Positions 37,038-46,018 of a DNA stretch of 64,000 bases are shown piece by piece; the stretch's first letter is position 1; each line of letters opens with the position of its first letter. This DNA comes from Deltaproteobacteria bacterium. GTDB lineage: Bacteria; Desulfobacterota; Desulfobacteria; Desulfobacterales; Desulfosarcinaceae. The notes below the pieces were generated by a model. It saw only the letters and a list, made by a program, of their open reading frames with translations, ran no database searches and had not been told where the DNA came from. Position numbers and translations under genes: made by a program. The stretch covers positions 1 through 64,000 of the forward strand of contig JAHLLR010000015.1 of assembly GCA_020444075.1 (NCBI GenBank). The letters run 5' to 3'.

Positions 37038-37065
37038 TTGACAGAACCGGATGATGCCTTAAAGT
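37038..37065 (+). promoter_or_regulatory. promoter of the SAM-riboswitch operon
   Basis: TTGACA (37038-37043) and TAAAGT (37060-37065) are 16 bases apart. The expected start point, near 37072, is about ten bases before the conserved core of the aptamer, which supports the call. Confidence 0.55.
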
Positions 37066-37080
37066 AATTTCTAATGATAA

Positions 37081-37225
37081 TTTTTCATGGAGAGTGGCGT
37101 GAGGGAACTGGCCCTGTAATCGCCCGGCAACCTTTTTTCCGCAAGGTGCCAATTCCAGCCCGAAAGGGGAACATGTGGTCTTGATGACAAGGGGAAACCC
37201 ACCTCTCCAACTGGAGAAGCTTTTC
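37081..37225 (+). promoter_or_regulatory. SAM riboswitch (SAM-I family, perhaps SAM-I/IV variant)
   Basis: The sequence follows the conserved S-box core in order: TGGAGAGTGGCGTGAGGGAA (37088-37107) with AGGGA, then CTGGCCCTGTAATCG, CCCGGCAACC (37123-37132), a T-rich loop and AAGGTGCCAATTCCAGCCCG (37143-37162), then GAAAGGGGAACATG closing the helix. This is the SAM-binding aptamer; in known cases SAM binding switches off downstream methionine or sulfur genes. A CTCTCCA at 37203-37209 is exactly complementary to TGGAGAG in the aptamer and precedes a small hairpin with TTTTC, giving a possible expression platform. The next long gene is the PKS at 37578, about 350 bases away, so the controlled operon is that of the PKS and MetE-like genes. 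A covariance search is needed to fix the subclass. Confidence 0.85.
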
Positions 37226-37577
37226 ACTTCACCATGACCCGCCTTAACGTTTAAATCATCGACGGGAAAAAAGCGTTTAAAGCGATTGAATAGATAGCCT
37301 GTAGTCAGAAAAATCGATAATTGACCAGGAAGCTGAACGTTGCATTGCGTCGATCGCGAGCACCCGGTTTGAATCGAAAACCGTCATAGATATAGGCACT
37401 GGATTCAGATGTTCGCCGAAAAGGCCTCCGGTTATTTTCCGGAGTGATGAATCAGATGCCGGCACCTGTGGTTTCGTGTGGTTCATGACGCCTGGATACC
37501 ACCAAGGAATGCGTTGGATGACCCGAAGCATATCATCTGCCATCGGCCGGTTTGACAACGACCAAGAGGAAGACCAA
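37226..37577 (+). other. leader between riboswitch and PKS gene
   Basis: A 352-base untranslated stretch. It has no ORF of note. CTCCGG and CCGGAG near 37420-37440 can form a hairpin with no U-run, so termination here is not supported. Confidence 0.4.
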
Positions 37578-40376
37578 ATGAAAAAGACTGTTTTTATATT
37601 TTCGGGAGAAGGTACGCATGACAAAGATACCCCCTTCCGACTGTTGAAGCATTCACCATCCTGGACGAAAGTAGAGCATATTCTCCATTCAAAACTGAAC
37701 CTGGATTTGGAACAGCTCTGGAATAGTGAAATCGGTCGGCATCGATGCCCATCCAGTCCATTGCTTACCGTAATATCCCAGATCTGCCTGTCAGAAATAT
37801 GGTGCAAATGGGGGTATGCCCCGGATGTCGTGATCGGCCACAGCACCGGAGAATTGTCGGCCGCCTACCAAGCCGGTTTATATTCGCTGGAAGATATTCT
37901 CGTGTTGGCTTATCGGATCGGGGAAGTCGCTTCCCGACTGGATGGGGTAATGCTGCATGGCAGATTGTCCGATTCGGAGATAGGTCAATTGCCGGTCAAC
38001 CTATCGTCGCTCAATTTCGAAGACGAAGCGGGTAAGCATGTCACTGTGAGCGCTTTCGCCGGAGAGATGGAAGCGTTTCTCGAGAATTATCCCGATTTTA
38101 TAATAATGAAATTGCCCCATCCGTGGCACCATCCTGATTATGGACGTTTTTCCGAGCAATTGGCGTATGCCAAATCGGGCCGGGTCGATGACGGCACCTT
38201 TGTGTCAGGCGTCACCACGGGGTTTGAAACCCGCCTCGATGATCGTCACTGGCACCAGTGGCTGGTCAAACCCATCGATTTTATTCGATCGATGCGGACC
38301 ATCGAAGAGCGATATCGTGATCACCACCTGGACATCATCGAAATCGGTTTTCATCCGGTATTGGAAAATTGCTGCAAACCTTTTCGCAATTACACGTATG
38401 TGTCCTCCATGTTCCGCGGCGAAGATGATATCGAATGGATTATGTATCAGCGAAGCAAACTCGAACAGGGCGTTTTTTTGAAGAAGCTGAAGCAGTCCAT
38501 CGACCCATTCAGGCCGCGGTTGAATTTTGGGATGTCACTGGCGTACCAGGGTTTTGACTCTTTGGCTTTTGCCGAGTTGTCGGACTTGCTGCGACCTTTT
38601 TTCCCATCTCTCGCCCCTCAGGATTTCTATCGCTATAAAACAATCAATCAATTGATCGGACAGTTCGGAATCAAAGCGTCGGTTGAACGGCAGGACTACC
38701 GAACGGTTCAGAGAAACGGCGTCGTGATTTCCGGGATGAGTTGCCGGTTCCCCTCTTCCGTGGAAACCGTGACTCAATTCTGGGAGACGTTGGTGAGCGG
38801 TGTCGATCAGGTGAACCTGGAAGCGACACGAGGTGGATCCGAAGCCGGTTTTTTAAATCATGCCATTACCCGGTTCGATCATCAGTATTTCAATATTTCC
38901 GTGGCCGAAGCCCGGACCATGGATCCGCAACAAATCCTGGCCCTGGAACTGGCCGAAATGTTGTGGAGAGATGCCGGTATTGATCCAGATGCCCTGGACA
39001 AGAAACGGGTCGGCGTCTACATCGGTGCATGGAACCAGGAATATCGGGGAGACCGGACGTCGGTTTACTATCCCACCGGGGTCAATCCGAGCATCATCGC
39101 CGCCAGAATCAGCTATCACTATGATCTGAGGGGACCCAGCTGGGTGTCCAACACCGCCTGTTCCTCTTCGCTGTTGGCCGTTCATTACGCAGCCAAGGAT
39201 ATCGAAGCCGGCCGGGTAGACTACGCGATCGCCGGTGGCATCAACATGCTGCTGGATGAAGAATTTACCATCACCATGAGAAAATCCGGATTCCTCTCCG
39301 GTGATAACCGATGCAAATCGTTTGATGACTCGGCCAATGGATATGTCCGTGCCGAGGGAGGCGGGCTGGTCCTTTTAGTCAACAAATCACTGGCAGCCGA
39401 GTATTATGCCGAGTTGACAGGCTCCGCCATCAACCAGAACGGTGGTCGATCCCAGGTGATCACCGCACCGCATCCTGAAGCCCAGGAGGAATTGATTATG
39501 GCTGCCTGCCAGGATGCAGGAATTGCCCCGCAGGAAATCGCCTACATCGAAACGCATGGTACGGGAACGAAAATCGGCGATCCTATTGAGATGGCTGCGA
39601 TTCAGAACACGATTGCCAAAGACAGGACGGACACGTGCTATATCGGCTCCGTGAAATCCAACATCGGACATCTGGAATCCGCCGCCGGTATTGCCGGTTT
39701 GCTCAAGTCCGTGGCGGTTTTGAATCATGGGATCATTCCACCCAATCTGCACTTTCAACGACCGAACCAGTATATCGATTTTCAATCGCATCCTATCCAG
39801 GTGGTCACCCAAGAAACCCGGATCGATCATCAAGCCAATATCGGTGTCAGCAGTTTCGGATTCGGTGGCTCAAATGCACATATCATTGTCAAGGGGGCAC
39901 AGGCGTCTGTCCGAAAGGAGATCAGGCCCATGGAGATCCCGTTTGACCGGCAACGGGCCGCCCTTCTCAGCGCATACCTTCACGTTCAGGAACCGAAACC
40001 CTTCGAATCACCCAATGAGCCGACGGTTAAGCAAACCGGTTCGGATGTCCGGCGGATCATCCAGACCCTGTTTACCCATGTGACCGGAGTCTCAGAGATC
40101 CATCCCGATATAGAGCTGTTGGAACAAGGGCTGGACTCTATTAGTGCAACCGAGATGATCCATCGCCTCGGGGAGGAATTCAATATTGAAATCGAACCGG
40201 ACGTACTTTTCGACAATCCGCTTTTCGATCAATTTGCAGAGGCCATCGAGGGCCGGATAGCACAGCAAAAAGAAAATGGCGCCGCAACGGTCGTCACCAG
40301 GGAAAAAATTGACAAATTGGTGACCGAACTCTTCTTCCAGTTAACCAGTATCGAAGAAATTGATCCGGAAATATAG
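37578..40376 (+). CDS. iterative-type polyketide synthase protein, AT-ACP-KS-ACP, C-terminal ACP cut by amber codon
   Basis: ATG 37578 lies behind CCAAGAGGAAGACCAA; the 932-residue protein has an unusual order. Residues 1-290 are an acyltransferase: KTVFIFSGEGTH, the active site GHSTGE (87-92, S89) and EIGFHPVLENCC. Residues 310-370 resemble an ACP (GFDSLAFAELSDLL, S328). Residues 380-770 are a ketosynthase: NTACSSS with the active Cys at 528, ETHGTGTKIGDPIE and KSNIGHLESAAGIAG give the Cys-His-His triad. Residues 822-895 are an ACP (LEQGLDSISATEM, S854). A third ACP begins but stops at TAG 40374. No KR, DH, ER or thioesterase is present. It is the first gene after the SAM riboswitch and is followed by a MetE-like gene. 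The product is unknown. Confidence 0.85.
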   Translation: MKKTVFIFSGEGTHDKDTPFRLLKHSPSWTKVEHILHSKLNLDLEQLWNSEIGRHRCPSSPLLTVISQICLSEIWCKWGYAPDVVIGHSTGELSAAYQAGLYSLEDILVLAYRIGEVASRLDGVMLHGRLSDSEIGQLPVNLSSLNFEDEAGKHVTVSAFAGEMEAFLENYPDFIIMKLPHPWHHPDYGRFSEQLAYAKSGRVDDGTFVSGVTTGFETRLDDRHWHQWLVKPIDFIRSMRTIEERYRDHHLDIIEIGFHPVLENCCKPFRNYTYVSSMFRGEDDIEWIMYQRSKLEQGVFLKKLKQSIDPFRPRLNFGMSLAYQGFDSLAFAELSDLLRPFFPSLAPQDFYRYKTINQLIGQFGIKASVERQDYRTVQRNGVVISGMSCRFPSSVETVTQFWETLVSGVDQVNLEATRGGSEAGFLNHAITRFDHQYFNISVAEARTMDPQQILALELAEMLWRDAGIDPDALDKKRVGVYIGAWNQEYRGDRTSVYYPTGVNPSIIAARISYHYDLRGPSWVSNTACSSSLLAVHYAAKDIEAGRVDYAIAGGINMLLDEEFTITMRKSGFLSGDNRCKSFDDSANGYVRAEGGGLVLLVNKSLAAEYYAELTGSAINQNGGRSQVITAPHPEAQEELIMAACQDAGIAPQEIAYIETHGTGTKIGDPIEMAAIQNTIAKDRTDTCYIGSVKSNIGHLESAAGIAGLLKSVAVLNHGIIPPNLHFQRPNQYIDFQSHPIQVVTQETRIDHQANIGVSSFGFGGSNAHIIVKGAQASVRKEIRPMEIPFDRQRAALLSAYLHVQEPKPFESPNEPTVKQTGSDVRRIIQTLFTHVTGVSEIHPDIELLEQGLDSISATEMIHRLGEEFNIEIEPDVLFDNPLFDQFAEAIEGRIAQQKENGAATVVTREKIDKLVTELFFQLTSIEEIDPEI

Positions 40377-40538
40377 TTGACGGAGCAGGGTCTGGACTCC
40401 ATGAGTGGTTCGGAGCTGATCTCTCGATTAGAAATATCTTTAAATATTGAAATCGGGCCGGAAATCCTTTTCGAATACCCCCTGCCAGACCAGTTTGTCG
40501 ATGAAGTGTCGGCATTGGCCGGCAGGGTCCGGAATTGA
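40374..40538 (+). pseudogene. 3' half of a third ACP, read after an in-frame TAG
   Basis: After the TAG at 40374-40376 the same frame continues without a break to a TGA at 40536: LTEQGLDSMSGSELISRLEI and NIEIGPEILFEYPLPDQF, a complete second half of an ACP with the phosphopantetheine Ser in GLDSMSG. In the neighbouring ACP the corresponding position is Glu (DIELLEQGLDS); a single GAG to TAG change explains the stop. No start codon with a ribosome site is present here, so without read-through this half is not made. Confidence 0.75.
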
Positions 40539-40702
40539 AAGGCACGTCGGTAAGGGTACCGAAGAACATCACCGGCGCAGGCGGGATTCGGCAAAAAAAA
40601 GACGCTGCTGGGGGATAAATGTGCTTTTTCAACCTGACTTTTAGGCGGTGCAACCAAACCCAATCGTTTTTCAACAGCTTGCAATGCGAAAGGTGAGCCC
40701 AT

Positions 40703-41848
40703 ATGGCAGACTTTAAAACCACCCATGTTGGATCGTTGCCCCGCCCTCAGGAGATGATGGGGAAGTCGTTGCACAAGCAGGAGATCACCCGGGATGATCT
40801 GAAGCGCTATCTGGCCGACATTTTGGACAAGCAATTGTCTTTGGGACTCACCTATATCAACAACGGCGAGTTGCCCAGACCGGATTACGTAAATTCGACC
40901 GTCAGTCGAATTTCGGGTTTCGGCGGCACCGGCATCGCGCCGATACCACGGGATCTGGAGGAATTGCCCGATTTTTCAAGACGGTTTAGCGGTCGGAATG
41001 GATTGATTACGCTGAATCCGAAAGCGCCGATCAAACTGCCGGCATGTTCGGCGCCGCTTTCATATATCGGTGAAGCCTCGCTGCGTGAGGAACTGGAGAT
41101 GATGGCCGGGGTCTTCAGGGAGTTGGAGCAAAGATATCCGGACGTCCATACCGGTCTTTTTTTCACCTCACCATCTCCGGGAACCGTTGCCCTTTTTATG
41201 GAGAACCAATACTTCCCCAATTATGAAGCCTACCTTGAAAATATCGCGGCGGTCTTGAAAAAGGAGTATGACATTATCGCCAGCTACGGTTTTCAATTGC
41301 AGATCGATTGCCCTGATCTGGCCATGGGCCGACACACCCGATTCAGCCGTCAGACCGATACGGAATTTCTTGCCATCACCGACACCCATGTCCACGCCCT
41401 GAATCAGGCACTGACCTCTGTCGATGCGGACAAGTGCCGGGCCCATATTTGTTGGGGGAACTATGCCGGCACCCATCATTGCGATATGGATTTCAAGAAG
41501 ATTTTTCACCAGGTCATGAATGTCAACGCCAGGTTCATTTCCATAGAAGCCAGCAACCACCGCCATGCTCATGAATGGACCGTGTTCGAAGAATTCCGAT
41601 TGCCGGAAGATAAAGTCTTGATGCCCGGTGTCATCGACACCTCCTCCACCATTGTAGAACATCCCGATCTGGTGGCCCAGCGACTCACCGCATTTGCGAA
41701 CCTTCTGGGCCCGGACCGGGTGATCGGATCGACGGATTGTGGTTTTGCCACAACCGCTTCTGCCGCCAACGTACCCGGTGAAGTAGCATGGTTGAAGCTG
41801 GCCTCCCTCGTTGAGGGTGCCAGACGGGCAGGCAGGCGATTCGATTAA
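40703..41848 (+). CDS. MetE-like zinc methyltransferase / thiol alkyltransferase family protein
   Basis: The 381-residue protein is about half the size of MetE and corresponds to its C-terminal barrel. It starts TTHVGSLPRPQEMM, carries YINNGELPRPDYV, and all four zinc ligands of MetE are in place: HICW (about H248 and C250), ISIEASN (about E281) and GSTDCGFAT (about C345), with EASNHRHAHEWTVFEEF as in epoxyalkane:coenzyme M transferase-like proteins. So thiol activation by zinc is well supported. The donor could be a methyl-corrinoid or another alkyl group; the acceptor may be homocysteine or another thiol. It follows the PKS by 165 bases with AAAGGTGAGCCCAT, in the operon downstream of the SAM riboswitch, which fits a methionine or thiol function. 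Confidence 0.85.
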   Translation: MADFKTTHVGSLPRPQEMMGKSLHKQEITRDDLKRYLADILDKQLSLGLTYINNGELPRPDYVNSTVSRISGFGGTGIAPIPRDLEELPDFSRRFSGRNGLITLNPKAPIKLPACSAPLSYIGEASLREELEMMAGVFRELEQRYPDVHTGLFFTSPSPGTVALFMENQYFPNYEAYLENIAAVLKKEYDIIASYGFQLQIDCPDLAMGRHTRFSRQTDTEFLAITDTHVHALNQALTSVDADKCRAHICWGNYAGTHHCDMDFKKIFHQVMNVNARFISIEASNHRHAHEWTVFEEFRLPEDKVLMPGVIDTSSTIVEHPDLVAQRLTAFANLLGPDRVIGSTDCGFATTASAANVPGEVAWLKLASLVEGARRAGRRFD

Positions 41849-41894
41849 GGATCGATGGAAGTCAACATAACCAGAGAATAACCGAGGAAATATC

Positions 41895-43721
41895 ATGAGT
41901 CATTCAAACCATTATGCCCACGGCGTGCGAATCGCCAATTTTTCAACTATTGATTTGCCGGCCGACGATCTGCTGAACTTCGGGTCCGAAGCGAGCGCCT
42001 CCATAGTGAAGCAGATAAGAAGATATGCAGATCTACCCTATGTATACGTCGTAGGAAACGAGCAGGCCAAACAGGTTGATGAAGTACTATCGGCACTCAA
42101 GGCCATACGGTCCCCTTGCTATCCCTATGCGATCTTTGCGGTTGAAGATGCGAATCTGGTGATCGAGGGTCCTGACCTGGATGTCATTAAGATCAACACC
42201 ACCGATCCGGATAGCCTGCACAGCCGGATCACTGAATATGCGGCTGGTCGATTTCACATTGATGATAGCCAATTACGTTCAGCCAGTTCCGGTCCACCGC
42301 CGGCAACGGCCGATGTGGCCATAGTGGGTGCCGGGGTGACCGGTCTGTATGCGGCCAATCGGTTGAGGGAAAGTGGCATCTCTTTTTGCATCCTGGATAA
42401 AAGGGACAAGGTCGGCGGTATCTGGTCCATGTATGCCAATGCCACTTCCCGGGTCAATACCTCCGAGGGTGCCTACCGGCTGATTGAGAACACCACCAGA
42501 TCCAATCGCGACCACTCCGCGACACGGGAAATCCTGGACGATGTTGCCCAATTGTCCAAGAATGTGTCGAATGATCTTTACCTGGGAACCGAGGTCCTCG
42601 GCATTGAAAAAACGGCAAATGGGTATCAGATCCGGTATAACAGGGAGGGCGACATAGCCGTAATAAAAAGCAAGGGCGTCATCTTGGCGATCAACGATCG
42701 GGTCGGGACGCCAAGAGAACTTGAATGGCCGGATCAATCAAGGTTTCAGGGAGCGATCATCAGCGGAATTTCCGACAAAACCAAGGAACTGGATTGGCGC
42801 GATAAAAAGGTGGTCGTTGTGGGAATGGGCGCCTTCGCTGTTGAAAACGCCAGGACGGCGCTGGAAGGTGGAGCGCGCCATGTGACCGTGATCTGCCGGC
42901 GCCATGGCACCATCTGCCCGAAGATCATCGACTATCTGAACTTTGCCACCCCTTACGACGACGACTTTAAACATGACAAGAAAAGCAATATTCGTAACAT
43001 GATGTACTGGAAAAAACTGTATCAACTAAGCGGTGCGACGCAGCCCGAGTGCTGGATGGGAAAGATCAAGCATGCAGGGCATACCATCAGTGTTTCCGAT
43101 ATTTGGTTTATTGCGCATTTTTTAAAGAAGATCGACACCATCACCGGTGAAGTCAACGATTTGTATCCGAATGGGGTCGTCGTCAACGGTCAACAGCGCA
43201 TCGATGCGGATATCATCGTGAATTGTATCGGATTTGAGCGCAATACCTCGGCGGCCAAAGCCATCTGCGGCCACCCTGAAATTTACAACACCAATTACGT
43301 AGACAAAGATTTCATGTATCTGGCAGATGCCTACATCGACGATGACGCATTCAACTCCTTTTTCGGTTCCAGCGTCATAGAGATGGTGAAGTTCTATATG
43401 AAAGTATATGTTAACTATTTCGACAATCCTGAATATGAAAAAATGGCTGACATCGACGGAATAGAAAAAATTCCCATTGAAGACCGCAAGTGGTCCCACT
43501 ATATAAAAGGGGCCGCTGCCCTTATCCAAAACGATCGCGAACTTAATGAAAGCGCCAGGTCGCAGGTTGCTCAAAGAACAAAAAATTTTCTTGAGAGTCA
43601 TGACCTGGAAACCTATATCGCAGAAAATAAAAGAGAGTGGATCGATACGCATTCGATGCTGGCCGGCAAGCCGATGCGGGAAGAGGATTGTCTGCCGTTT
43701 GTCTTTGATAAATTACTTTAG
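41895..43721 (+). CDS. FAD-dependent monooxygenase-like protein with N-terminal extension
   Basis: This 608-residue protein starts at ATG 41895 (ACCGAGGAAATATC upstream), 47 bases after the MetE-like gene. Residues 1-140 are an extra domain without an obvious family. Then come ADVAIVGAGVTGLYAANRLR (about 145, FAD-binding GxGxxG), LDKRDKVGGIWSMY as in flavin-containing and Baeyer-Villiger monooxygenases, and VVVVGMGAFAVENARTALEG (about 310), the second, NADPH-binding Rossmann motif. The later DADIIVNCIGFERNTSAAKA resembles the conserved G-F region. It probably oxygenates the product, or a thiol, of the preceding genes. Its stop abuts the insertion element at 43725. Substrate unknown. Confidence 0.8.
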   Translation: MSHSNHYAHGVRIANFSTIDLPADDLLNFGSEASASIVKQIRRYADLPYVYVVGNEQAKQVDEVLSALKAIRSPCYPYAIFAVEDANLVIEGPDLDVIKINTTDPDSLHSRITEYAAGRFHIDDSQLRSASSGPPPATADVAIVGAGVTGLYAANRLRESGISFCILDKRDKVGGIWSMYANATSRVNTSEGAYRLIENTTRSNRDHSATREILDDVAQLSKNVSNDLYLGTEVLGIEKTANGYQIRYNREGDIAVIKSKGVILAINDRVGTPRELEWPDQSRFQGAIISGISDKTKELDWRDKKVVVVGMGAFAVENARTALEGGARHVTVICRRHGTICPKIIDYLNFATPYDDDFKHDKKSNIRNMMYWKKLYQLSGATQPECWMGKIKHAGHTISVSDIWFIAHFLKKIDTITGEVNDLYPNGVVVNGQQRIDADIIVNCIGFERNTSAAKAICGHPEIYNTNYVDKDFMYLADAYIDDDAFNSFFGSSVIEMVKFYMKVYVNYFDNPEYEKMADIDGIEKIPIEDRKWSHYIKGAAALIQNDRELNESARSQVAQRTKNFLESHDLETYIAENKREWIDTHSMLAGKPMREEDCLPFVFDKLL

Positions 43722-43724
43722 AAA

Positions 43725-45193
43725 AGTCGACTCTGAAAAAGCATTTATCTATCAGAAAACATTGGTAAAATAACACATTTTGTGCTATGTTATTTGCAAG
43801 ATTTCAACCTTTTACCTACTCATTTCTTGCAAATTTCAGCCATGAAACCCAAGCAATCTGCACACAAAAACAGGCAAAGGGATCTGTTCCGACCTGAGCT
43901 CACGAAAATCATCGATCCCGGGCATGGGCTAGTAAAACTAGCCAAAGCGGTCAATTGGGATCGCATGGATGAGTTGTTCGGACAAACGTACTGCCCGGAC
44001 AACGGTCGGCCAGGCGTCAGCACCCGGTTGATGGTATCGTTGCACTACCTGAAGTTTTCATTCAACCTCAGTGACGACGATGTCGTTTCCGGATGGGTGG
44101 AAAACCCCTACTGGCAGTATCTTAGCGGAATGCAGTTTTTCGAGCACGATCCGCCGATCAATCCGTCGAGCATGTCCCGATGGCGCAAACGCATCGGCGA
44201 GGGCGGAGCCGAGGAACTGCTCAAAGAAACCATTGCCGCCGGGTTAACGATCAAAGCGGTCAAGCCCCACCAGCTCAAACGGGTCAACGTGGACACGACC
44301 GTACAGGAAAAAGACATTCGCTTTCCCACCGACGCCCGCTTGTATGATCGCGCCAGACGAAAATTGGTTGATGCCGCCAAACAGCATGGCATTGCGCTGC
44401 GCCAGAACTACAACCGCAACGCCAAACATCTTTTAGCCCAGCAAAGTCGCTATGCGCATGCCCGCCAGATGAAACGGGCCAGACGGTGTACCCGGAAACT
44501 GAAAACCTATTTGGGCCGGGTGATCCGAGACATTGAAAGAAAATTCCCGCATCCGGACGAAGCGCTAAAATCACTTCTTGATATTGGCACCCGCATTTTC
44601 CATCAACAGCGCAAAGACAAGAACAAGATCTACAGTGTTCACGAGCCGGCGGTAGAATGCATCAGCAAGGGTAAAGCGCACAAGCGTTACGAGTTCGGCT
44701 GCAAAGTCAGTGTAGCGGCCACCAGCCGTGGCGGTTGGTTCGTCGGTGCCAAGGCGGTTCACGGTAACCCTTATGACGGCCATACGTTAGAAGCGGCCCT
44801 CAAGCAGGTCGAACGAATTGGCCGTCCCCCCGAGCATGTGTTTGTGGACATGGGCTACCGCGGTCACGGATACACAGGCAAGGTTGATGTGCATGTCGAC
44901 AAACGACGACGCGGAAGAACAGCCAAGAGCTTGTGGCGCTGGATGAAGCGTCGGGCAGCCGTTGAGCCGGGCATCGGGCACCTGAAACAAGAACATCGAA
45001 TGGATCGTTGTCGCCTCAAAGGAACCCTTGGCGACTGCATCAATGCCATCTTCAGTGCTGCCGGAATGAACTTCCGGAAGCTGCTGCGCTGGGCAGCAGA
45101 TTTTTTGTTTCAGTTTTACTTCCGGCTCCTATTTTATCAAAGATCAGGGATCTTAACTGGCGTAGTCATAAAATGACTTTTTCAGGATCGACT
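43725..45193 (+). mobile_element. IS5-family insertion sequence
   Basis: The ends are inverted: AGTCGACTCTGAAAAAGCAT on the left (from 43725) and, read as reverse complement, AGTCGATCCTGAAAAAGTCA on the right (to 45193). The element holds one transposase gene. It starts four bases after the monooxygenase stop and ends 15 bases before the thioesterase-like gene, splitting what may have been one operon. A clean target duplication could not be fixed by eye. Confidence 0.75.
43842..45176 (+). CDS. IS5-family transposase
   Basis: ATG 43842 gives 444 residues; a longer in-frame start at 43782 is possible. The N-terminal DUF772-like part (RPGVSTRLMVSLHYLKFSFN, SSMSRWRKRIGEGGAEELL) precedes a DDE domain: D in LKRVNVDTTVQEKD, D in PEHVFVDMGYRGHGYTG and E in VEPGIGHLKQEHRMDRCRL. 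A Arg/Lys-rich stretch occupies the middle. The frame is intact, so the element may still be active. It belongs to the IS unit at 43725-45193. Confidence 0.9.
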   Translation: MKPKQSAHKNRQRDLFRPELTKIIDPGHGLVKLAKAVNWDRMDELFGQTYCPDNGRPGVSTRLMVSLHYLKFSFNLSDDDVVSGWVENPYWQYLSGMQFFEHDPPINPSSMSRWRKRIGEGGAEELLKETIAAGLTIKAVKPHQLKRVNVDTTVQEKDIRFPTDARLYDRARRKLVDAAKQHGIALRQNYNRNAKHLLAQQSRYAHARQMKRARRCTRKLKTYLGRVIRDIERKFPHPDEALKSLLDIGTRIFHQQRKDKNKIYSVHEPAVECISKGKAHKRYEFGCKVSVAATSRGGWFVGAKAVHGNPYDGHTLEAALKQVERIGRPPEHVFVDMGYRGHGYTGKVDVHVDKRRRGRTAKSLWRWMKRRAAVEPGIGHLKQEHRMDRCRLKGTLGDCINAIFSAAGMNFRKLLRWAADFLFQFYFRLLFYQRSGILTGVVIK

Positions 45194-45208
45194 AGAAAAG
45201 AGCATACG

Positions 45209-46018
45209 ATGATGCCAGACACCTCATTTTCAACAATGCTTGCCATGGTTGGCGATGCCTCCAAAGGAATCCGCCTTCAACTGCCGGAAGACTGGATGCA
45301 GGGACGGGCCGGATTCGGCGGACTGGTGGGTGCGCTGGCTTTGACGTCCATGAGAAGCCATGTCCCGCCGGCGCGAAAGGTGCGGAGCCTGCTGATCTCA
45401 TTCGTAGGGCCGGTCGGACCGGGGGATTTTTCGATCCATGCCCGAGTGCTGCGATCAGGCAAGGCCGTCACCCATGTGGAAGCCAGGCTGGTTCAGCAGG
45501 AGGCGGTAAGGTGCGTGGTGATGGGCAGCTTTGGCGGCGACCGGGACTCCGCCATCCGGATCGACCCGGCGCCGCGGCCGGAGATGGTAGGTCCGGCGGA
45601 GTCCCTCGAATTACCCTACCTTGATGGTCTGACACCGGCCTTCACGCGCCATTTTGCCTATCGGTGGGCACTGGGCGAATTGCCTTTTTCCGGCACGGGC
45701 GGTCGTGAAATCGGCGGGTGGATCCAGTTCCGCGAACGAACCGATTGCCTGACCGAAGAGTGGCTGGTGGCCCTGGCCGATGCCTGGCCCACGCCGGTGC
45801 TCGCCATGCTCACGGCCCCGGCGGCAGCCAGCACGTTGACCTGGGAGATGGGGTTCGTTCATCTGGACCGCCGGACCTGTGTGGAAGATGACTGGTGGTG
45901 CTACCGTTCGGTGGTGGACAGTGCAGAAAACGGCTATGTTCACGAACGGGGTGCCATCTGGGATCCTGAAGGAAGGCTGGCGGTCTACAGCCGTCAGACA
46001 TCGACGGTATTTGCATAG
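45209..46018 (+). CDS. acyl-CoA thioesterase-like protein (TesB-like hotdog)
   Basis: The ATG at 45209 follows AGAAAAGAGCATACG; the open frame extending into the insertion sequence is not coding for this protein. The 269-residue protein has the double-hotdog layout: GRAGFGGLVGALALTSMRSH, LLISFVGPVGPGDFSIHARV, GKAVTHVEARLVQQ in the first half; IQFRERTDCLTEEWLVALAD, TWEMGFVHLD and WYRS-like YRSVVDSAENGYVHERGAIW in the second. It should hydrolyse a CoA or ACP thioester. It may be the release enzyme of the PKS operon upstream, since the PKS lacks a thioesterase domain, but an insertion sequence now separates it from the other genes. Confidence 0.78.
   Translation: MMPDTSFSTMLAMVGDASKGIRLQLPEDWMQGRAGFGGLVGALALTSMRSHVPPARKVRSLLISFVGPVGPGDFSIHARVLRSGKAVTHVEARLVQQEAVRCVVMGSFGGDRDSAIRIDPAPRPEMVGPAESLELPYLDGLTPAFTRHFAYRWALGELPFSGTGGREIGGWIQFRERTDCLTEEWLVALADAWPTPVLAMLTAPAAASTLTWEMGFVHLDRRTCVEDDWWCYRSVVDSAENGYVHERGAIWDPEGRLAVYSRQTSTVFA

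What the first reader, a model, noticed from the sequence alone, without database searches (positions are those of the whole stretch)
37038..46018. SAM riboswitch controlling a small polyketide synthase operon with a MetE-like and a flavin monooxygenase gene
A clear S-box aptamer with its own promoter (TTGACA-N16-TAAAGT) is followed by a PKS gene, a MetE-like zinc protein, an FMO-like protein and, past an insertion sequence, a thioesterase-like gene. SAM riboswitches are known for methionine and SAM genes; I know of none placed ahead of a PKS. The set suggests a methyl- or thiol-containing polyketide made under SAM limitation, or a link between acyl and sulfur metabolism. Co-transcription and product are inference.
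Basis: partly seen in the sequence, partly recalled or inferred. Interest (0 to 1): 0.85.

Follow-up and report, generated by a model that had tools for sequence, protein, structure and literature searches.

The report
SAM riboswitch before a polyketide-synthase cassette
A genuine RNA switch of the kind that senses the methyl donor SAM sits in front of a compact three-gene set (a small polyketide synthase, a methionine-synthase-like zinc enzyme and a flavin enzyme) that recurs in related sulfate-reducer-type bacteria, which suggests that these microbes make an unknown small molecule when SAM runs short.

Summary
A SAM-I (S-box) aptamer lies at 37082-37179 (RF00162, 56.5 bits, threshold 44.4), followed by a PKS (AT-ACP-KS-ACP), a MetE-core-like protein and an FMO-superfamily flavoprotein. 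The set is conserved: the three genes are neighbours in all 11 loci whose contigs cover them, and an S-box over threshold precedes the PKS in 8 of 11. PKS and flavoprotein occur in the same 10 of 389 genomes of the order. Four of the eight leaders have strong terminators; those of the window and its three closest relatives are weak. MetE is inverted in 4 of 11 loci. A 7-bp target duplication shows that an IS separated a thioesterase gene that had followed the flavoprotein directly; that gene was not found in the other ten loci. The MetE-like protein keeps the zinc and homocysteine residues; the AT lacks the extender-binding Arg. Product and chemistry are unknown. My paper searches found no SAM riboswitch before a PKS. 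New variant of a known kind.

The parts
37038..37065 (+). sigma-70-like promoter TTGACA-N16-TAAAGT
   Evidence: 10/12 consensus matches, not beyond chance alone; TTGACA upstream of 7 of 8 S-boxes of the family, window included
37082..37179 (+). SAM-I (S-box) riboswitch aptamer
   Evidence: RF00162 56.5 bits, gathering score 44.4
37175..37226 (+). putative expression platform: GUGG (37175-37178, 3' P1 strand) can pair with CCAC (37199-37202); then hairpin TCTCCAACTGGAGA (37204-37217) with a short U-run (weak terminator)
   Evidence: -5.6 kcal/mol, 4 U in 9 nt; partner strands by eye; stretch up to the hairpin shared with L021-L023
37578..40376 (+). type I PKS, 932 aa: AT (GHSTGE), ACP, KS (TACSSS, ETHGTGT, NIGHLE), ACP; ends at an in-frame TAG
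   Evidence: Pfam, alignment A3
40374..40538 (+). in-frame TAG, then an intact second C-terminal ACP up to TGA; L023, L027 and L029 have a sense codon (E, E, A) here
   Evidence: tRNA-Pyl and PylS in the same genome
40703..41848 (+). MetE-core-like protein (Meth_synt_2), 381 aa, zinc and homocysteine residues conserved
   Evidence: PF01717 52.8 bits, cut-off 21; A2 and A7; model Z 33.1 to 3rpd
41895..43721 (+). FMO-superfamily flavoprotein, 608 aa, with a ~130-aa N-terminal extension
43726..45192 (+). insertion sequence (DUF772/DDE transposase), 7-bp target duplication TAGAAAA, inverted ends 15 of 20
45209..46018 (+). 4HBT_3 acyl-CoA thioesterase-like gene; its ATG lay 13 nt after the flavoprotein stop before the IS inserted; apparently lineage-specific
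   Evidence: no match at E 1e-6 in the other ten covering loci, two of which end within 0.6 kb of the flavoprotein gene

Best explanation
A SAM-I riboswitch controls a self-contained biosynthetic cassette. Shown by sequence and comparison: aptamer, its recurring place upstream of the PKS, conserved trio, conserved catalytic residues. Inferred: when SAM is plentiful the aptamer folds and the leader is terminated; when SAM is short the 3' strand of P1 pairs with the 5' strand of the terminator and the cassette is expressed. The PKS would load a non-carboxylated acyl starter with its AT onto ACP1, and its KS would do one condensation onto the C-terminal ACP(s), giving a beta-ketoacyl thioester with no reduction. 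The MetE-like enzyme would activate homocysteine (or a related thiol) as a zinc thiolate and join it to, or exchange an alkyl group with, the polyketide intermediate. The NADPH/FAD protein would then do a redox step. The product would be a small sulfur- or homocysteine-linked acyl metabolite made under SAM or methionine shortage. My own odds are about 0.85 for the regulated cassette as a family trait and about 0.25 for the chemistry; the figure below is for the whole with the chemistry left open.
For: S-box over threshold in the window, upstream of the PKS in 7 of 9 further loci and in 0 of 1 other complete locus (L039): 8 of 11. Trio adjacent in 11 of 11. PKS profile (strict limit 1e-200) and flavoprotein hit the same 10 of 389 genomes. 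Flanks differ (with a crude ORF caller). U-tailed terminators in L024, L025, L026, L028. P1/terminator partner strands change together: GAGG/CCUC in L024 and L026, GUGG/CCAC in the window and L021 (by eye). The other S-boxes found precede methionine genes: metY in the own genome (L002) and in 7 of 9 in the 14 genomes searched, metK 1, a core MetE-like gene 1. Zinc (H248, C250, E282, C346) and homocysteine (S11, E56, D202) positions are invariant in all 8 rows of A7. KS C528/H660/H698, AT S89/H181 and the ACP1 serine S328 are invariant in 10 of 10 rows. The position matching the FabD extender Arg is I or L in 10 of 10.
Against: No S-box over threshold in L027, L029, L039. The window's hairpin is weak, it is not among the terminator-like sites, and the leader does not fold better than shuffles (z -0.23). 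MetE is on the opposite strand in 4 of 11 loci (L025, L027, L029, L039), so it is not always on the S-box transcript. No expression data. No domain or enzyme that defines the product. The flavoprotein lacks the FMO His motif in 10 of 10, and bacteria of this order are largely anaerobes (recalled), so an oxygenase step is doubtful. The homocysteine substrate is inferred from residues only, and one pairwise alignment (to 1u1h) set another H-x-C (H258, C260) against the zinc ligands; 1ypx and A7 favour H248 and C250.
Confidence: 0.68

Rival explanations
1. The cassette is an unusual methionine-supply route: the PKS and flavoprotein make or free a methyl donor, and the MetE-like core passes the methyl to homocysteine, as MesX is thought to do for MesD. 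The S-box is then ordinary methionine regulation.
For: Core MetE fold with intact zinc and homocysteine residues and no folate half; S-box control; a core MetE-like gene follows an S-box in G587 (L053); MesD needs MesX, predicted to be a flavoprotein (PMC7857596, passages).
Against: The genome has a separate core methionine synthase over NCBIfam's cut-off (L071, PRK09121, 504 against 392 bits), while the cassette protein's best is 69 against 406. A PKS is an odd methyl source. No DUF1852/MesX among the ten window proteins scanned. MesD is reported only from aerobes.
Confidence: 0.15
2. In the window the riboswitch is a decaying relic: the aptamer persists, but the expression platform no longer terminates, so the cassette is constitutive or otherwise regulated.
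For: Weak hairpin with 4 U in the window and no good U-tailed hairpin at that place in L021-L023; long leader; IS next door and a TAG before the second C-terminal ACP; no S-box in L027, L029, L039.
Against: The aptamer core and the post-aptamer stretch CATGTGGTCTTGAYGACAAGGG are nearly invariant across the window and L021-L023, not expected of a relic; Rho-dependent or translational readout remains possible.
Confidence: 0.17

Closest known systems
SAM-I / S-box riboswitch (RF00162)
   Same: Aptamer over the gathering score, full model length; in four relatives a U-tailed terminator follows
   Different: Precedes a PKS cassette and not a methionine or SAM gene; weak terminator in the window's clade
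Core (folate-independent) methionine synthases MesA-MesD (PMC7857596, passages seen)
   Same: Single MetE-type barrel, no folate half, same zinc and homocysteine residues; MesD likewise needs a partner predicted to be a flavoprotein
   Different: Far below methionine-synthase cut-offs; tied to a PKS and an FMO-superfamily protein; the genome has another core synthase
'Cobalamin-independent methionine synthase II family' proteins of Ruegeria, Rhodococcus and Halorussus plasmids
   Same: 37-40% identity over full length in A7, with the CPDLAMGRH, HICWGNY and NHRHAHEW regions largely shared (38 plasmid records match)
   Different: No PKS or FMO annotated within 8 kb in the three records opened (that gene table is incomplete); function unknown to me
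Sulfonium-acid polyketides (DMSP/gonyol to malleicyprol; PMC7496086, search listing with abstract start only)
   Same: Precedent for an assembly line loaded with sulfur compounds
   Different: Not compared by sequence; no SAM riboswitch or MetE-like protein known to me there

Membership tests
SAM-I riboswitch (RF00162) | Aptamer scores over the curated threshold | tested here: met
   56.5 vs 44.4 bits
SAM-I riboswitch (RF00162) | Expression platform with mutually exclusive terminator and antiterminator | tested here: inconclusive
   U-tailed in L024, L025, L026, L028; weak in the window and L021-L023
SAM-I riboswitch (RF00162) | Binds SAM and changes expression | not testable with these tools
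   needs in-line probing or a reporter
Type I PKS | KS, AT and ACP domains with catalytic residues | tested here: met
   Pfam; invariant residues in A3 (roles recalled)
Malonyl/methylmalonyl-specific AT | Arg that binds the extender carboxylate (FabD R117, recalled) | tested here: not met
   I/L at residue 114 in 10 of 10 rows, register
MetE catalytic domain (PF01717) | Family score over cut-off and MetE barrel fold | tested here: met
   52.8 vs 21 bits, best stretch residues 176-353 only; Z 33.1 to 3rpd, 31.9 to 1t7l
MetE catalytic domain (PF01717) | His-x-Cys, Glu, Cys zinc ligands and Ser/Glu/Asp homocysteine contacts | tested here: met
   invariant in the 8 rows of A7; residue roles from PMC7857596, carried over by me; the 1u1h alignment sets H258/C260 there instead of H248/C250
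Methionine synthase (NCBIfam equivalogs) | Score over curated cut-off | tested here: not met
   best 69.3 vs 406 bits
MesD/MesX system | MesX (DUF1852) beside the core enzyme | tested here: not met
   none among ten window proteins scanned; rest of the genome not tested
Class B flavin monooxygenase | Two dinucleotide-binding motifs and FMO/BVMO-like fold | tested here: met
   GxGxxG at 145-150 and GMGAFA at 310-315; Foldseek best rows DiatB and BVMOs, VIA-align best rows YpdA, TrxR and FMOs at Z 17-19; model pLDDT only 68.8
Class B flavin monooxygenase | FxGxxxH fingerprint (recalled) | tested here: not met
   His position (290) is S, A, P or N in 10 of 10 rows

The most novel reading that the evidence does not exclude
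A SAM riboswitch has been recruited to a dedicated natural-product pathway: under SAM starvation these bacteria make a homocysteine-derived acyl metabolite (sink, signal or metal ligand) by a mini-PKS working with a zinc-homocysteine enzyme. It would be the first natural-product PKS under a SAM-sensing RNA, as far as my searches reach.
Probability: 0.35. Interest if true: 0.85.

Novelty: new variant of a known kind. Interest (0 to 1): 0.7.

Why it matters
SAM riboswitches are known mainly as switches of methionine and SAM genes (recalled; also what the other S-boxes found here precede). A conserved S-box before a PKS would tie a specialised metabolite to the methyl/sulfur budget and give a direct handle (methionine limitation) to switch on a cryptic pathway in anaerobes whose products are little known. 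It also gives a concrete context for a group of MetE-like proteins whose function is unknown to me.

Tried and rejected
Chance S-box or chance neighbourhood: rejected; two S-boxes were found in the 5.6-Mb own genome (150 of 568 first-look candidates were scored), and S-box plus PKS recurs in 7 other loci.

Thioesterase as core member: not supported for the family (no match at E 1e-6 in the other ten covering loci; L024 and L025 end within 0.6 kb of the flavoprotein gene, so eight are informative), kept as a former neighbour here.

Longer PKS start (GTG 37476): rejected; similarity begins at the MKK/MRK start, and in 5 of 9 relatives the open frame itself starts there.

TAG at 40374 as pyrrolysine: left open. 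The genome has PylS over its cut-off and tRNA-Pyl, and nearby frames look like PylB, PylC, PylD and MttB (named by me from the translations), but TAG is also the stop of the LysE, flavoprotein and thioesterase genes, and three relatives have Glu or Ala there; a nonsense mutation is at least as likely.

Other SAM riboswitch class or relic in L027 and L029: a permissive scan gave nothing of the SAM clan; L039 was scanned at gathering score only.

Formal pair statistics on terminator and antiterminator: not done, the alignment is out of register there; the pairing is read by eye. My hairpin scan allows perfect stems only, and missed or underrated 3 of the 10 metY/metK/MetE leaders.

Concatenated tree: IQ-TREE did not run (thread setting); only FastTree gene trees, in which the window and L021-L023 form a clade (support 0.945 to 1.000) and the three loci without S-box do not.

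Papers: PMC8079986 holds 'SAM riboswitch' and 'polyketide synthase' in unrelated passages; its S. lividans S-box is placed before genes labelled threonine biosynthesis. PMC8742066 and PMC5481532 mention MetE only as an expressed or flanking gene (passages). PMC12366255 outline and abstract only. The gonyol papers only as a search listing with abstract starts. The N-terminal extension of the flavoprotein was not searched alone.
Full report
Observation. The covariance search finds exactly one RNA family over threshold in the window: the SAM-I aptamer at 37082-37179, 56.5 bits against 44.4, full model length. By itself it is not beyond chance (10 promoter-like sites in the 9.2-kb scan, 8.0 expected), but TTGACA stands upstream of the aptamer in 7 of 8 leaders of the family, window included, L023 being the exception (sequences printed). 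Downstream lie a PKS (37578-40376), a Meth_synt_2 protein (40703-41848), an FMO-superfamily flavoprotein (41895-43721), an IS and a 4HBT_3 thioesterase.

Distribution. With the flavoprotein as query, 1 of 297 genomes of the phylum sample (the own genome, E <= 1e-40) and 10 of 389 of the order sample (own included, E <= 1e-25) have a relative; the nine others are 57-65% identical. A profile of the PKS, with a strict limit (1e-200), hits the same 10 of 389. The MetE-like protein was searched in the phylum sample only: 7 of 297, the six others 36-43% identical. I fetched the nine other neighbourhoods (L021-L029): PKS, MetE-like and flavoprotein are neighbours in 9 of 9. A scan of genome contigs (84,980 species by the tool's description) with the flavoprotein alignment used two peptide patterns, so distant members can be missed; it returned 11 loci. 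The record names are Desulfobacteraceae, Desulfobacterales, Desulfosarcina, Desulfobulbaceae and Desulfofustis, one Olavius-associated Delta 1 symbiont, one Deltaproteobacteria and one Proteobacteria bacterium. So the trio is adjacent in 11 of 11 covering loci, window included.

Flanks. Among open frames of the window and L021-L029, no family beyond the trio is shared by more than two loci; two are shared by two each, one an alpha/beta hydrolase just upstream of the S-box in L026 and L028. The ORF picker is crude: it missed the window's thioesterase and the MetE-like gene of L022, and some contigs end close to the trio.

Riboswitch conservation. An S-box over threshold precedes the PKS in 7 of the 9 other loci (L021-L026, L028) and in the window, not in L027 and L029 (also not at permissive threshold), nor in L039 (gathering score only): 8 of 11. 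In 14 related genomes (the nine carriers and five others) 16 S-boxes were found, in 12 of 14 (part of the first-look candidates were scored). Seven are those of the PKS cassette, and the other 9 precede metY (7), metK (1) and a core MetE-like gene (1). The other S-box found in the own genome precedes metY. This looks like an ordinary methionine regulon to which the PKS cassette has been added.

How the switch may work. In L024, L025, L026 and L028 a hairpin of -8.0 to -13.5 kcal/mol followed by 5-8 U in 9 nt lies some 20 nt beyond the aptamer. Of the ten metY/metK/MetE leaders in the same call, 7 show a hairpin of -11 kcal/mol or better with 5-8 U; the other three score poorly in my perfect-stem scan. 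The end of P1 (GAGG or GUGG) can pair with the 5' side of the terminator: GAGG/CCUC in L024 and L026, GUGG/CCAC in the window and L021, with wobbles or one mismatch in L022, L023, L025 and L028 (read by eye). In the window the hairpin is weak (-5.6 kcal/mol, 4 U), L021-L023 have no good U-tailed hairpin at that place, and the window's leader does not fold better than shuffles (z -0.23). These four form one clade in three gene trees (support 0.945-1.000) and share a nearly invariant post-aptamer stretch, so they may use another readout. This is the main weakness of the claim for the window itself.

Proteins. PKS: KS C528, H660, H698, AT S89 and H181, and the ACP1 serine S328 are invariant in 10 of 10 (roles recalled). 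The residue matching the Arg that holds the carboxylate of malonyl-CoA in FabD (role recalled; register) is Ile or Leu in 10 of 10, so a non-carboxylated starter is likelier for this AT. MetE-like: zinc ligands H248, C250, E282, C346 and homocysteine contacts S11, E56, D202 (roles from PMC7857596, passages; carried over by me) are invariant in all 8 rows of an alignment that includes a core MetE-like protein, L053. One pairwise alignment, to 1u1h, sets H258 and C260 against the His and Cys ligands instead; the one to 1ypx agrees with A7. The AlphaFold2 model (pLDDT 80) matches B12-independent methionine synthases at Z 27-33, ahead of uroporphyrinogen decarboxylases at about 22. Methionine-synthase cut-offs are far from met (69 against 406 bits), and the genome has another core synthase over cut-off (L071). 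Flavoprotein: FMO/BVMO/TrxR-type fold by a middling model, no FMO His motif in 10 of 10.

Thioesterase and IS. The IS is bounded by a 7-bp duplication (TAGAAAA) and inverted ends alike at 15 of 20; the empty site puts the thioesterase start 13 nt after the flavoprotein stop.

Against a single operon. MetE is on the opposite strand in 4 of 11 loci (L025, L027, L029, L039). L025 has the S-box none the less, so there at most PKS and flavoprotein could follow it. Co-transcription in the window is plausible (same strand; MetE-flavoprotein gap 46 nt; PKS-MetE gap 164 or 326 nt, depending on the TAG) but not shown. In the pattern scan one plus-strand terminator-like site lies between 37579 and 43721, inside the PKS gene (39141); that scan does not list the weak hairpin at 37204.

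Verdict. Real and conserved, and not reported in what I could search: 'SAM riboswitch' with 'polyketide synthase' (one unrelated paper); 'riboswitch', 'biosynthetic gene cluster', 'SAM-I', 'polyketide' (two papers, one seen in passages, the other as listing only); 'S-box', 'SAM riboswitch', 'Deltaproteobacteria' (none); 'SAM riboswitch', 'natural product', 'biosynthetic gene cluster' (one paper, listing only); 'S-adenosylmethionine riboswitch' with 'secondary metabolite' (one paper, listing only). The library holds open-licence papers only. The switch is of a known kind, its regulon is new, and the chemistry is open.

Noticed in passing
window 40374-40538: In-frame TAG in front of an otherwise intact second C-terminal ACP of the PKS; the same genome carries tRNA-Pyl and PylS (L070), so pyrrolysine read-through is possible, as is a recent nonsense mutation.
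   Followed up: partly
window 43726-45192: IS with 7-bp target duplication inserted right at the flavoprotein stop codon, splitting off a thioesterase gene.
   Followed up: yes
window 37176-37260; L021, L022, L023: The clade of the window keeps a nearly invariant post-aptamer stretch (CATGTGGTCTTGAYGACAAGGG) and a loosely conserved segment near CACCATGACCC after the hairpin, but no strong U-tract; the readout may differ from termination.
   Followed up: partly
L026:11119-11889, L028:7514-8314: An alpha/beta hydrolase gene lies just upstream of the S-box on the same strand in these two loci.
   Followed up: partly
L005 and L011 (G284:C26): Two tandem relatives (43% identity) of the MetE-like protein in another genome of the phylum sample, in which only the own genome had a flavoprotein match.
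   Followed up: no
L025:4213-6922: PKS frame is broken between KS and ACP (frameshift or assembly error).
   Followed up: no
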